Assembly (NCBI GenBank): GCA_902806205.1 | Contig: CADCVR010000024.1 | Span: 1 to 64,000, forward strand | DNA length: 64,000 nucleotides | Reading direction: 5' to 3' | DNA from: an uncultured Solirubrobacteraceae bacterium | GTDB lineage: Bacteria > Actinomycetota > Thermoleophilia > Solirubrobacterales > Solirubrobacteraceae | Part shown: one piece after another, positions 1 to 8,426 of the stretch | Layout: each line of letters begins with the position of its first letter | Numbering within the stretch: the stretch's first letter is position 1 | The notes under the pieces: generated by a model | The model's database searches: none | What the model was told of the DNA's origin: nothing | The model's input: only the letters and a program-made list of their open reading frames with translations | Program-made: the position numbers and the translations under genes

Positions 1-27
1 GGGGTGGGGGCGCGTCCCGGCCGCGGG

Positions 28-33
28 TAGGGT
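28..33 (+). promoter_or_regulatory. -10 box of thioesterase gene (leaderless)
   Basis: TAGGGT lies 6 nt before the ATG at position 40 and no Shine-Dalgarno sequence fits between them. Transcription would start at or next to the start codon. The -35 region is not evident. Confidence 0.5.
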
Positions 34-39
34 GCGGCG

Positions 40-414
40 ATGGCCTACGACGCCACCCTCGGGCTCGTCGTCGACGTGCTCGGGGACGAGCTTGCTCGCG
101 CCCACGTCCTCGTGGAGGACCGCCACAAGCAGCCGATGGGGCTCGTCCACGGCGGGCTGCTGGCCTCCGTCGCCGAGGCCCTCGGCGTCCGGGCGACCGC
201 CGCCGCGGTGGCCGCGGAGGGCGGGGCCGCGCGCGGCCTGTCGAGCCAGACGAGCTTCCTGCGGCCCCTGTTCGGCGGGACCCTGCGCGCGGAGGCCCGC
301 CGCCGGCACCGGGGGCGCACCACGTGGCTGTGGGAGGTGGACCTCGCCGGCGACGACGGGCGCCTGTGCGCGCTCGTGCGGGTCACCGTGGCGGTCGTGC
401 CCGCGCCCGGCTGA
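40..414 (+). CDS. PaaI-type hotdog-fold thioesterase
   Basis: This 124-aa protein is about one hotdog domain long. HGG at residues 37-39 followed by LLASVAEALG matches the hotdog central helix of acyl-CoA thioesterases of the PaaI/4HBT group. A later SSQTSFLRPLFGG segment and an AEARRRHRGR strand also fit the fold. It probably hydrolyses an acyl- or aryl-CoA thioester in the cytoplasm; the substrate cannot be told. In a men region it could be a DHNA-CoA thioesterase, but that is only a suggestion from position. The ATG at 40 is chosen because a -10 box sits 6 nt upstream. It ends 12 nt from the convergent dehydrogenase gene. Confidence 0.85.
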   Translation: MAYDATLGLVVDVLGDELARAHVLVEDRHKQPMGLVHGGLLASVAEALGVRATAAAVAAEGGAARGLSSQTSFLRPLFGGTLRAEARRRHRGRTTWLWEVDLAGDDGRLCALVRVTVAVVPAPG

Positions 415-426
415 GGCGGGCGGGGC

Positions 427-1311
427 TCAGGCCGGCCGGATGACGTTCTGCAGCGGCTCGCCGCGCAGGACCCGGCCCATCTGCTCGACGGCGAGGACGC
501 GCGCGCGCTCGTCGGCCTGGGCCGAGTCGCCGGCCTGGTGGCTCGTCAGGGCGAGCAGCCCCGGGGCCGCCCACAGCGGGTGGTCGTCGGGCAGCGGCTC
601 GGGGTCCACGACGTCCAGGACCGCGCGCAGCCGCCCGGATCGCAGCTCGGCCAGGAGGGCCGGGGTGTCGACCGAGGCGCCGCGGCCCGCGTTGACGAAC
701 AGCGCGCCGTCGCGCATCCGGCCCAGGAACGCGGCGTCGACCAGGCCCCGGGTGGCGTCGGTCAGCGGCGTCAGCAGGATCACGGTGTCCGCGCCGGACA
801 GGAGTTCGGGGAGCTCGTCCATCCCGTGGACCCCCTCGCGCGCGCGTCGCCCGACGCCCTGCACCGTGACGCCGAGCGCCTCGAGGAGCCGCCCCGTGGC
901 GCGGCCGATGGAGCCGTAGCCGACGATGACGGCGGTGCTTCCCGCGACGTCGTGCGGGGGCTCGTAGTTCCAGGAGCGCCTCTGGGCCGCCTCGAGCAGG
1001 CCGGTGGCCGCGCCGAGCACCGCGCCGACGACCCACTCGGCGACGGGGGCGTCGCGGGCGCCGCGGGCGTTGCACAGCGTGACGCCGGCGGGAATCCGGT
1101 CCTCGATCCACTCCGTCCCGGCCGACAGGACCTGCACCACGCGCAGGTCCGGCAGCCCGCCGAGATCCCTGTCCAGGCCCGAGTCGGGGACCAGGAACGC
1201 GACGCCGTCCAGGCCGTCCTCCGCCCGGCGCACCTCGACGCCGGCCGGCGCCAGGGCGCGCAAGCGCTCCCACTCGTCACGGGACACGGCGGCGATCACG
1301 TCCTCCACCAT
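427..1311 (-). CDS. D-2-hydroxyacid dehydrogenase family protein
   Basis: The 294-aa protein has the Rossmann motif GYGSIG (131-136), the NAGRG segment with catalytic Arg210, Glu238 in VVDPEPLP and His258 in SHQAG. These are the Arg, Glu and His of the D-isomer-specific 2-hydroxyacid dehydrogenases. It likely reduces a 2-keto acid or oxidises a D-2-hydroxy acid with NAD(P)H in the cytoplasm. It is shorter than phosphoglycerate dehydrogenases and lacks an ACT domain, so it is not serA. The substrate is unknown. Its ATG is 32 nt from the divergent GTG of the MFS-MenD fusion gene. Confidence 0.88.
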   Translation of the reverse strand: MVEDVIAAVSRDEWERLRALAPAGVEVRRAEDGLDGVAFLVPDSGLDRDLGGLPDLRVVQVLSAGTEWIEDRIPAGVTLCNARGARDAPVAEWVVGAVLGAATGLLEAAQRRSWNYEPPHDVAGSTAVIVGYGSIGRATGRLLEALGVTVQGVGRRAREGVHGMDELPELLSGADTVILLTPLTDATRGLVDAAFLGRMRDGALFVNAGRGASVDTPALLAELRSGRLRAVLDVVDPEPLPDDHPLWAAPGLLALTSHQAGDSAQADERARVLAVEQMGRVLRGEPLQNVIRPA

Positions 1312-1331
1312 GCCAGGCGGGCGCCCTGCTG

Positions 1332-1337
1332 TAGTGC
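1332..1337 (+). promoter_or_regulatory. -10-like box of MFS-MenD fusion gene
   Basis: TAGTGC lies 6 nt before the GTG at 1344 inside the 32-nt divergent gap. It departs from TANNNT at the last base, so support is modest. Confidence 0.35.
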
Positions 1338-1343
1338 CTGCCC

Positions 1344-3056
1344 GTGCGCGCCAGCTTCCGCGTCCTCGGCCGGCCGGCCTTCCGCAACCTGTGGCTCGCG
1401 CAGACCACGAGCGTCCTCGGCGACCGCCTGGTGCTCGTCGCCCTCGCCCTGTTCGTCACCGACCTCACGGGAAGCGCGAGCGACGTCGGTCTGGTGCTGG
1501 CCGCGGGGACCGTCCCGTTCGTCGCGTTCCTGCTCGTCGGCGGCGTGTGGGCCGACCGGCTGCCGCGGGCGCGGCTCATGGTCGGCACGGACCTCGTCCG
1601 GGCCGGGCTGCACGGGCTCCTGGCGGTCCTCATCTTCACCGAGACGGTGCAGGTCTGGCACCTGGTGGTCATCGAGGCGCTGTTCGGGACCGCCCAGGCG
1701 TTCTTCCGCCCCGCCTCGACGGGACTGCTGCCGCGCACCGTCCCGGCGGCGGAGATCCAGGAGGCGCACGCCCTCACGAACATGACCAACAACGTCGCCG
1801 AGCTCACGGGGCCCGCGCTGGCCACCGCGCTCGTGCTCGGCGTCGGGGCGGGGTGGGCGTTCGCCCTCGACGCCGTCACCTTCCTCGTCAGCGCGTGGTT
1901 CCTGCTCCGCGTGGACGTGGCGGACGCCCCGCCGACGGCCGCGGAGCGCTCCACCGTCCTCTCGGACCTCGCCGAGGGCTTCGGCCACGTGCGCTCGCGC
2001 CCGTGGGTGTGGGTCACCGTCGCGGTCTTCGCGCTCGCCGTGCCGCTCGGCTACGGGCCGCTGTTCGTCCTGGGCCCCGCCGTGGCGGGCGGCACGTACG
2101 ACTCCGCGGCGCTGTTCGGGATCGCCACCGCGCTGCTCGGCGCCGGCGCGCTCGCGGGCGCCACCCGTCCCGACGTCGTGCTCCGCGTCGGTGACCTGCC
2201 GACGGGCAAGCCCCTGCGCGAGTGGCTCGCCGGCGCGGACGCGATCCAGGTCGGCCTCGACCCCGAGGGCGCCTGGCAGGACCCCGCCGCCACGCTCGAC
2301 CTCTCGCTGCCCGCCGAGCCGGCCGGCGTGCTGGCGGAGCTGGCCGGGCGGCTCGCGCCCGGGCCCGCCGAGCCCCCGCCCTACCTCAGCGGCTGGCTGC
2401 GCGCCGACCAGCTCGCCGCGAGTGCCCTCGACACGACGCTCGGCGAGCAGCTCTCCGAGCCTCGCGTCGCCCGGGAGCTCGGCCTGGGCCTTCCCCCGGA
2501 GGCGACGCTCGTCGTCAGTGCCTCCATGCCGATCCGCGACGTCGAGACGTTCTTCCCCGCCCGGGAGAGCCCGCCGCGAGTGCTCTCCAACCGCGGGGCG
2601 AACGGCATCGACGGTGTCGTCTCGACGGCGTTCGGGGTCGCGGCCGGCTCCCCCGGCCCCGTCGTCGCGCTGATCGGCGACGTCGCCCTGGCCTACGACG
2701 TCGGCGCCCTGGTCAGCGCGCGACGCCTGCGGCTCGCGCTCACCCTCGTGCTGATCGACAACGAGGGCGGCGGCATCTTCGACTTCCTGCCCGTCGCCGA
2801 CACGCGGCCGCACGACACCTACGAAGTCCACGTCGCGACGCCGACCGGACTGGACTTCGCCGACGTCGCGGTCGCCTTCGGCCTGCGCTACCTGCCCGCC
2901 ACCTCCGTCCCGGAGTTCCGCCGCGCGCTCGACGCGGGCCTGGCGGACGACGGCGTCTGCCTCGTCCACGTGCACACCGACCGCGCGCACAACGTCCGCC
3001 TGCACCGCCGGGTGTGGAACGACGTCGAGCGCGCGCTCGCCGACGACCACCGGTGA
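1344..3056 (+). pseudogene. In-frame chimera: N-terminal MFS transporter fused to C-terminal MenD
   Basis: The 570-aa reading frame joins two unrelated proteins. Residues 1 to about 273 are the first two thirds of a major facilitator transporter, with the loop 2-3 motif GVWADRLPRAR. From about residue 276 (TRPDVVLRVGDLPTGKP) it is the second half of MenD, the thiamine-diphosphate SEPHCHC synthase of menaquinone synthesis. The MenD part keeps SNRGANGIDG, the cofactor motif near 444-446 (GDV) and NEGGGIF near 473. The whole MenD pyrimidine-binding domain, which carries the catalytic Glu, and the last MFS helices are missing. MenD activity is therefore not expected. A deletion of roughly 1.2 kb between adjacent MFS and menD genes, or a misassembly, would explain it. 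menF lies convergent downstream. Confidence 0.8.
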
Positions 3057-3125: not shown

Positions 3126-4583
3126 CTACAGCGCCAGCACCGGCAGGAGCGCCTGGAGCTTGGTCTCCGTCTCGGCCAGCTCGGCCGCCGGGTCGGAGTC
3201 GCGGACCACGCCGACCCCCGCGTAGCAGCGCGCCACCGGCCCCTGAAGCAGCGCGCAGCGCAGCGCCACGCAGAACTCGCCGTCCTCGTTGAGGTCCGTC
3301 CAGCCGACGGGGCCCGCGTACCAGCCGCGGTCGAGGCCCTCGAGCGCCGGAACGAGCGGGGCCGCCGCCGCCCACGGCTCGCCGCCCACAGCCGGGGTCG
3401 GGTGCAGGAGGCCCGCGAGCTCGACGGCCGCGACGTGCTCGACCAGTTGGGCGCGGATCGGCGTCGCGAGGTGCTGGATGTTCGCCATCCTGATCACCTG
3501 CGGCTCCTCGGCGGCCGTCACCCACAGCGCGACGCGCTCGAGTGCGCGCTCGATCCGGCGGGTCACGATCTCCTGTTCCCCGCGGTCCTTCTCCGAGCGC
3601 AACAGCTGCTCACCGAGGTAGTCGTCGACGGCGGGGTCGGCCGAGCGCCGGGCCGAGCCCGCCAGCGCCAGCGTGCCGGCGCGCAGGCCGTCGCGGCGGA
3701 CGAGCAGCTCGGGGCTGGCGCCCAGGAAGGTCGCGTCGCCGCGCCCGACGGCGAACACGTAACAGGAGGGGAACGCCTCGCGCAGCACGCCGAGCACCGC
3801 GCCCGCGTCGTGCGCGCGGCTGCGACCCGTATGGACTTGGACCTCGCGCGCGAGCACGACCTTCTCGAGCTCGCCGGCGCGGATGCGCTCGACCGCGCGG
3901 GCGACGGCGCCCTCGTAGTGCTCGGGCGGCATCGCGCTGACGACACGCGCGCGCCCCGCGGGGTCCGGGTCGAGGAGCGGCAGCCCTGCGAGGCGCAGCT
4001 CGTCGCAGCGCGCCTCCAGCCCCGCCAGCAACCTCTCGGGGGTGTCCCGGGGGCGCGCGAGCGCGTGGAGGGTCATGCGGACGTCGTCCCCGCGCCGCGC
4101 GATGGCGATCTCCGGGACGTGCAGCGAGGCCGGCGCGAAGCCGCTCCAGTGCGGGGCGTGCCCGCCCTCGGGCGCGAAGGCGAAGCCGCCGACCGCGATG
4201 GGGCCCGCGCCGCGCGGGCGCCCGCGATCGTCGTGCGCGTCGCAGCAGGCGTCGGACGCCAGGCGGCGCCAGCGCGCCGCACCCGTCCGGAAGCGATCAG
4301 GCCCCTGGCTCTCGAGTGCCTTCACGCACCCCAGCGTGGCCAGCGCGGAACGCTCGCGGTCCGGCTGCTCGAAGACGAACCACGGCTCGCCGGCGCGGCG
4401 GGAGGCCACGACGACGGCCGTCGGATCCGTGCGCGGGTCGAGCGCCACGGTGACCGCGGCGAGCGCTTCGCCGGCGCGCACCTGGCGTGCCCGCCGGACC
4501 GCGGCCTCGAGCTGCCGCTGCAGCCGCGCACGGTCGGCGGGCAGCAGCGAGAACGGGGGACGAGCGGCGGTCAGGGTCGGCAT
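3126..4583 (-). CDS. menF: Isochorismate synthase
   Basis: The 485-aa protein belongs to the chorismate-utilising family (MenF, EntC, TrpE). It isomerises chorismate to isochorismate, the first step of classical menaquinone synthesis. Conserved blocks are the KVVLAREV strand near 240, LGASPELLVRR, HPTPAVGGEPW near 394 and GWYAGPVGWTDLNEDGEF near 424, which carries acidic metal ligands. No glutamine-amidotransferase partner gene is adjacent, which argues against anthranilate synthase. The remains of menD are convergent on the other side of a shared terminator, supporting MenF over a siderophore enzyme. The ATG start is 13 nt after a TACCCT box on its strand. Confidence 0.88.
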   Translation of the reverse strand: MPTLTAARPPFSLLPADRARLQRQLEAAVRRARQVRAGEALAAVTVALDPRTDPTAVVVASRRAGEPWFVFEQPDRERSALATLGCVKALESQGPDRFRTGAARWRRLASDACCDAHDDRGRPRGAGPIAVGGFAFAPEGGHAPHWSGFAPASLHVPEIAIARRGDDVRMTLHALARPRDTPERLLAGLEARCDELRLAGLPLLDPDPAGRARVVSAMPPEHYEGAVARAVERIRAGELEKVVLAREVQVHTGRSRAHDAGAVLGVLREAFPSCYVFAVGRGDATFLGASPELLVRRDGLRAGTLALAGSARRSADPAVDDYLGEQLLRSEKDRGEQEIVTRRIERALERVALWVTAAEEPQVIRMANIQHLATPIRAQLVEHVAAVELAGLLHPTPAVGGEPWAAAAPLVPALEGLDRGWYAGPVGWTDLNEDGEFCVALRCALLQGPVARCYAGVGVVRDSDPAAELAETETKLQALLPVLAL

Positions 4584-7520: not shown

Positions 7521-7730
7521 TCAGTCGTAGCTGCGCTTCAGATAGTCGTAGCGAGGCTGACCCTCCGCTCGGCGCGATTCGTCGAACTGCAGCCGGGCGA
7601 GTCGGTAGCGACGGACCTTCGTCTCGGTGCTCGGCGCGACGACACGCGACGCGGCGGCGAACAGCAGGAGGCGGTGGGGCTCGAGGATGGGCATGGCGAC
7701 ATCCTCCGCGAGACGGGCCTGGGTTTGCAC
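7521..7730 (-). CDS. Short hypothetical protein, or tail of an interrupted gene
   Basis: A GTG at 7730 opens a 69-aa frame ending in RYDYLKRSYD with protein-like composition (PILEPHRLLLFAAASR). No ribosome site or -10 box precedes the GTG. Coding-like sequence extends upstream in the same frame for 20 codons (from GEHKPGPTVEG) to the TAG at 7791-7793 that ends the previous gene. Either this is a separate small gene, or the two frames were one gene split by a nonsense codon. No family recognised. Confidence 0.45.
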   Translation of the reverse strand: MQTQARLAEDVAMPILEPHRLLLFAAASRVVAPSTETKVRRYRLARLQFDESRRAEGQPRYDYLKRSYD

Positions 7731-7790
7731 GTCGTTCTGGCCGAATGTCGCACCGAGGCCTTCGACCGTCGGTCCAGGCTTGTGCTCCCC

Positions 7791-8426
7791 CTACGAGCGC
7801 GCCACTGCCCCCGCCCGATCGAGTGCCGGGCGCATGACTCCCGGCAGCCGGCGGCGCACGCGCCAGCGGGCGCCGGAGAACGCGCAGTTGGCGAGCGTGG
7901 CGAATCCCGCCTCGTCGGAGCGCAGGGCGAGCAGGAGATGCGCGATGCGATCGCCCGAGGGCAGCTCCGGATCGGGCACCCGCACGCAGTAGCAGAGCAC
8001 ACGCTTGCCGTTCTTGCGCACGAGCAGCGCACCGGCGCTGCCGACGAGCCACACGCCGAGCGCTCCCCGCTCGAGCACGAGCCCCGTCTGACGATGCAGC
8101 TCGCGCGCCTCGTGGCCGATCAGATCGCCCAGCAGCCCGACCGAGACGCGTTCGGCCCGCGCGGTCGCCTCGAAGTGCGGCGGGCGGACGACATTCGCTC
8201 CCCGGGCCGCGTAGAGCTCCGGGATGATCCACGCGTGCGCGAAGCTCGCGAGCGTCACCGGGAAGGCGAGTGGCTCGGCGGCGACGAGGACGATGCCGGC
8301 GCCCGCGAACGGGACGACGTGAGCGACCGTGGTGACCGTCCACCCCAGGCCAAGCCGGCGCAGGCGCTGCTCGTCGACCCGCGGGCGCCAGTGGACGCTC
8401 GCGAGCTCGGGCAGGACGTCGGTCAC
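7791..8426 (-). CDS. Hypothetical protein with two membrane segments
   Basis: From the GTG at 8426 the frame gives 211 aa. Two hydrophobic stretches occur early (VVPFAGAGIVLVAA and FPVTLASFAHAWII), followed by a soluble part including VLERGALGVWLVGSAGALLV and a CYCVRVPDPELPSGDR segment. I do not recognise the family. The start is chosen because sequence upstream of VTDVLPELASVHWRP is Pro/Arg-rich and overlaps the neighbouring gene. It lies 29 nt after the preceding 74-aa gene, probably in one operon. It ends at TAG with coding-like sequence continuing in frame beyond. Confidence 0.6.
   Translation of the reverse strand: MTDVLPELASVHWRPRVDEQRLRRLGLGWTVTTVAHVVPFAGAGIVLVAAEPLAFPVTLASFAHAWIIPELYAARGANVVRPPHFEATARAERVSVGLLGDLIGHEARELHRQTGLVLERGALGVWLVGSAGALLVRKNGKRVLCYCVRVPDPELPSGDRIAHLLLALRSDEAGFATLANCAFSGARWRVRRRLPGVMRPALDRAGAVARS

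What the first reader, a model, noticed from the sequence alone, without database searches (positions are those of the whole stretch)
1344..3056. Half an MFS transporter fused in frame to half of MenD
The reading frame switches from MFS (loop motif GVWADRLPRAR) to MenD (SNRGANGIDG, NEGGGIF) at about nt 2160-2170 without a stop. MenD lacks its pyrimidine domain and catalytic Glu, so menaquinone synthesis at this step would fail unless another menD exists. The neighbouring menF is intact. The seam lies in GC-rich repetitive sequence (GCGCTCGCGGGCGCC), which suits either a real deletion or an assembly collapse. If real, it implies loss of menaquinone synthesis or replacement by another enzyme.
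Basis: partly seen in the sequence, partly recalled or inferred. Interest (0 to 1): 0.72.

Follow-up and report, generated by a model that had tools for sequence, protein, structure and literature searches.

The report
Assembly misjoin faking an MFS–MenD fusion
The apparent half-transporter, half-vitamin-K-enzyme gene is almost certainly an assembly error 2.2 kb from the end of a contig: the missing front of menD is at the end of another contig of the same genome, so menaquinone synthesis is probably normal.

Summary
The ORF at 1344-3056 is in the sequence as described: an MFS N-half (to about residue 273) runs in frame into MenD (from about model position 262). It is very probably an assembly chimera, not a gene. 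The seam lies 2.16 kb from the start of contig C24 in a 108-contig draft genome. The menD N-terminus (TIGR00173 positions 3-125) runs off the end of contig C105 of the same genome, behind menB, menC and menH. In relative G003 one contig reads ilvB-ilvN-menF-menD-menH-menC-menB-ilvC-serA; C24 and C105 carry the two halves of that order, with a gap inside menD. In all five fragmented genomes of the genus in which menD was found, contig ends interrupt it, and residues 238-252 are always missing; that stretch is about 86% GC in P. antarcticus, a likely short-read drop-out. None of 60 relatives has the fusion. The three left-hand genes have no close relative in the genus, and one duplicates a native-looking copy, so the 2.16-kb piece is foreign or misplaced. 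Loss of menaquinone synthesis is not supported. Read mapping would settle it; no reads are held here.

The parts
1..2148 (.). left-hand segment of contig C24 that does not belong next to menD (thioesterase-like gene, D-2-hydroxyacid dehydrogenase, MFS N-half)
   Evidence: no high-identity match in genus, order or class sample; none of its genes lies beside menD in relatives
40..414 (+). thioesterase-like ORF, second copy in the genome
   Evidence: 57% aa identity to the copy on G000:C12, which itself is 86% to G002 and 78% to G005; the name 'thioesterase' is read from the sequence, no family search was run on it
427..1311 (-). D-2-hydroxyacid dehydrogenase (PF02826)
   Evidence: best relative 59% (other genus), 50% in the genus
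1344..2163 (+). MFS transporter N-terminal half, cut at the seam
   Evidence: TIGR00900/PF05977; about 58% to MFS proteins in other genera; C-half not found in the genome
2149..2163 (.). seam GCGCTCGCGGGCGCC (ALAGA), fits both MFS and MenD
   Evidence: alignment; the G005 contig ends at the same codons
2149..3056 (+). MenD C-terminal half (about residue 284 to end, P. antarcticus numbering)
   Evidence: 87% to G005 MenD; TIGR00173 and TPP_enzyme_C
3126..4583 (-). menF, isochorismate synthase, intact native neighbour of menD
   Evidence: TIGR00543 above cut-off; synteny

Best explanation
The fusion ORF is a false join made during assembly. In the real chromosome menD is whole and lies between menH/menC and menF. 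Short reads fail in the about 86% GC centre of menD, so the assembly breaks there. The 5' part ends contig C105. The 3' part begins the native portion of contig C24, to which the assembler attached an unrelated, equally GC-rich 2.15-kb piece (foreign or misplaced) through a roughly 15-bp GC-rich stretch that fits both genes. The join falls in frame by chance (one in three; stops are rare at 77% GC). Shown: the two halves on two contigs, conserved synteny, recurrent breaks, the GC peak in relatives. Inferred: coverage drop-out as the cause, and the origin of the left piece.
For: The seam is 2.16 kb from the start of C24. MenD N-term (TIGR00173 3-125, E 3e-58) runs off the end of C105. One contig of G003 carries ilvB-ilvN-menF-menD-menH-menC-menB-ilvC-serA in one run; C24 and C105 hold the complementary halves. 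G007, a complete genome, also has intact menD next to menH and menC. menD is cut by contig ends in all five fragmented genus members in which it was found (G000, G001, G002, G005, G006); P. antarcticus residues 238-252 are missing in all, while menF is essentially whole in G000, G002, G005 and G006. G005's contig ends at the same spot as the seam. The missing stretch is about 86% GC in P. antarcticus, and 120-bp windows reach 0.85-0.87 in two intact menD genes against 0.775 overall. No fusion in 60 relatives. The left segment's genes have no close genus relatives and its thioesterase duplicates a native copy.
Against: No reads or coverage are available, so the join itself is not directly disproved. 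The MFS C-half and the middle of menD (about 150 codons) are missing from the assembly, so the pieces cannot be rejoined end to end. A real rearrangement with an uncollected reciprocal product, or a minority strain, is not formally excluded.
Confidence: 0.96

Rival explanations
1. A real rearrangement broke menD and joined its 3' half to an MFS gene in this strain; menaquinone synthesis is lost or rescued by another enzyme.
For: Continuous in-frame ORF; no intact menD in the assembly.
Against: Both halves of menD sit at or near contig ends, and relatives with finished or long contigs show that these halves belong together. The same gene is broken in four other draft genomes of the genus. menB, menC, menH and menF are kept. 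No MqnC above cut-off; the only hit is CofGH.
Confidence: 0.03
2. A functional MFS-MenD fusion protein of a new kind.
For: Open frame of 570 aa only.
Against: It has half of a 12-helix transporter and half of MenD, without the PYR domain that carries the catalytic Glu (established knowledge of MenD); it is absent from 60 relatives and sits near a contig end.
Confidence: 0.005
3. A sub-variant of the best explanation: misjoin, but the left 2.15 kb is a native accessory piece of the same genome instead of foreign DNA.
For: Other Solirubrobacterales have each gene singly; GC is similar.
Against: All three genes lack close genus relatives and the thioesterase is a second, divergent copy; the MFS C-half was not found in the assembly.
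Confidence: 0.35

Closest known systems
MenD (SEPHCHC synthase, TIGR00173)
   Same: The 3' part is a normal MenD C-half, 87% to a genus relative.
   Different: Only the C-half is here; the N-half is on another contig.
MFS antiporters (TIGR00900, PF05977)
   Same: Residues 13-273 match the N-half of the family.
   Different: The C-terminal half is missing.
Chimeric contigs of draft genomes
   Same: Join near a contig end, at a short GC-rich stretch that fits both sides, with the true partner at another contig's end.
   Different: Nothing unusual, except that it happens to stay in frame.

Membership tests
MenD (TIGR00173) | full-length match above the curated cut-off (244.2 bits) | tested here: not met
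   128.7 bits, model positions 263-434 only
MenD (TIGR00173) | N-terminal PYR domain with catalytic Glu | tested here: not met
   absent from the ORF; the N-term is on C105:40630-41010
MFS transporter (TIGR00900) | match over both halves, above cut-off 319.6 bits | tested here: not met
   188.8 bits, positions 1-263 of 364
Assembly chimera | seam close to a contig end | tested here: met
   2.16 kb from the start of C24
Assembly chimera | missing partner of one half at another contig's end | tested here: met
   menD N-term at the end of C105
Assembly chimera | conserved gene order in relatives joins the two contigs | tested here: met
   G003 single contig; G007 for menC-menH-menD
Assembly chimera | coverage drop or discordant read pairs at the seam | not testable with these tools
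   no reads held

The most novel reading that the evidence does not exclude
A genuine rearrangement in this lineage destroyed menD while the rest of the menaquinone genes remain, implying a new replacement enzyme for the SEPHCHC synthase step.
Probability: 0.02. Interest if true: 0.55.

Novelty: not a real feature. Interest (0 to 1): 0.05.

Why it matters
It guards against a false claim of lost menaquinone synthesis. It also shows that the GC-rich centre of menD is a recurrent break point in draft genomes of this genus, so 'menD absent or truncated' calls there should not be trusted without read evidence.

Tried and rejected
Looking for the MFS C-half in the own genome gave nothing (no positive control was run, and the query came from another family of the order). 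Looking for the source of the left 2.16 kb by DNA in 232 genomes of the order and 399 of the class found no near-identical match. Base composition does not separate the left piece from the right. A thioesterase tree does not place the window copy (long branch), but identities show it is not the genus ortholog. Futalosine pathway: the MqnC hit was rejected as the CofGH FO synthase; MqnA, B and D were not searched. Paper searches: nothing on Paraconexibacter quinones; general papers on GC bias exist (e.g. PMC7016772, PMC13245658; only the starts of the abstracts were seen).

Full report
Observation. The window is the first 64,000 bases of contig C24 (79,753 bp) of a draft genome of 108 contigs and 3.38 Mb, 97% complete. 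The ORF 1344-3056 (+) encodes 570 aa. Residues 13-273 match MFS antiporters, and from about residue 262 the protein matches MenD model positions 263-434 and then the TPP-enzyme C-terminal domain. The two homologies overlap at ALAGA, nt 2149-2163.

Where the rest of menD is. A MenD profile search of the same genome finds the MenD N-terminus (positions 3-125, E 3e-58) at C105:40642-41010, that is, up to the last base of that 41,010-bp contig. Upstream of it on C105 lie menB, menC and, divergently, menH. Relative to the 579-aa MenD of G007, C105 stops at residue 133 and C24 resumes at about residue 284-290; some 150 codons are in neither.

Gene order in relatives. It has menC-menH-menD intact, with an unrelated insertion before menF. 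In G003 one contig carries ilvB, ilvN, menF, menD, menH, menC, menB, ilvC and serA in that order. C24 carries ilvB-ilvN-menF-menD(C) and C105 carries menD(N)-menH-menC-menB-ilvC-serA. The two contigs are therefore neighbours, joined inside menD, and the MFS gene has no place there. More distant relatives (G019, G011, Solirubrobacter) agree for menF-menD or menH-menD.

Why it breaks there. menD is interrupted by contig ends in every fragmented genome of the genus in which it was found: G001 (N-half to residue 224, C-half from 380), G002 (237, 396), G006 (234, 253), G005 (C-half from 284 only) and the present genome (133, about 287). Residues 238-252 are absent from all five. In P. antarcticus the stretch around them is about 86% GC, and 120-bp windows of the two intact genes peak at 0.85-0.87 against 0.775 for the gene. 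Poor short-read coverage of such DNA is general knowledge; papers on GC bias were found but only the starts of their abstracts were seen. menF, next door, is essentially whole in G000, G002, G005 and G006. G005's contig ends at the same place as the seam, at the ALA codons, which suggests that the misjoin was made at the natural end of the menD contig.

The left-hand piece. Nucleotides 1 to about 2150 hold a thioesterase-like gene, a hydroxyacid dehydrogenase and the MFS half. The menD and menF parts are 87% identical to G005, but the dehydrogenase reaches only 50% in the genus (59% outside), the MFS part 47% in the genus (58% outside), and the thioesterase about 61% in the genus, while a second thioesterase copy on C12 is 86% and 78% identical to genus members and is evidently the native one. 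No genome of the order or of a class sample carries the piece at high identity, and the MFS C-half was not found in this genome. The piece is thus more likely foreign than native, but this is not settled.

Function. menB, menC, menH, menF and both ends of menD are present. The one MqnC-like hit is the CofGH FO synthase. The simplest reading is an ordinary, intact menaquinone pathway with an unassembled stretch in menD. None of 60 relatives shows an MFS-MenD fusion.

Verdict. Assembly artefact, confidence 0.96. What remains untested is direct read evidence.

Noticed in passing
L009:2730-4059 (G007:C1, between menD and menF): A radical-SAM-like protein (PYRGCSHACTYC) appears to be interrupted by an intein-like stretch (GPDTPVLMADGRHRRIADLRAGDRIYGTERRG) in Paraconexibacter antarcticus; it lies between menD and menF there.
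   Followed up: no
G001:C118/C171, G002:C455/C45, G006:C50/C240, G005:C496 (L113-L119): menD is broken by contig ends at its very GC-rich centre in all short-contig genomes of the genus in which it was found, a systematic assembly gap.
   Followed up: yes
L102:6872-7651 (-) and 7613-8011 (+): Open frames of menH and menD overlap divergently at their 5' ends; the true menH start is probably further in.
   Followed up: no
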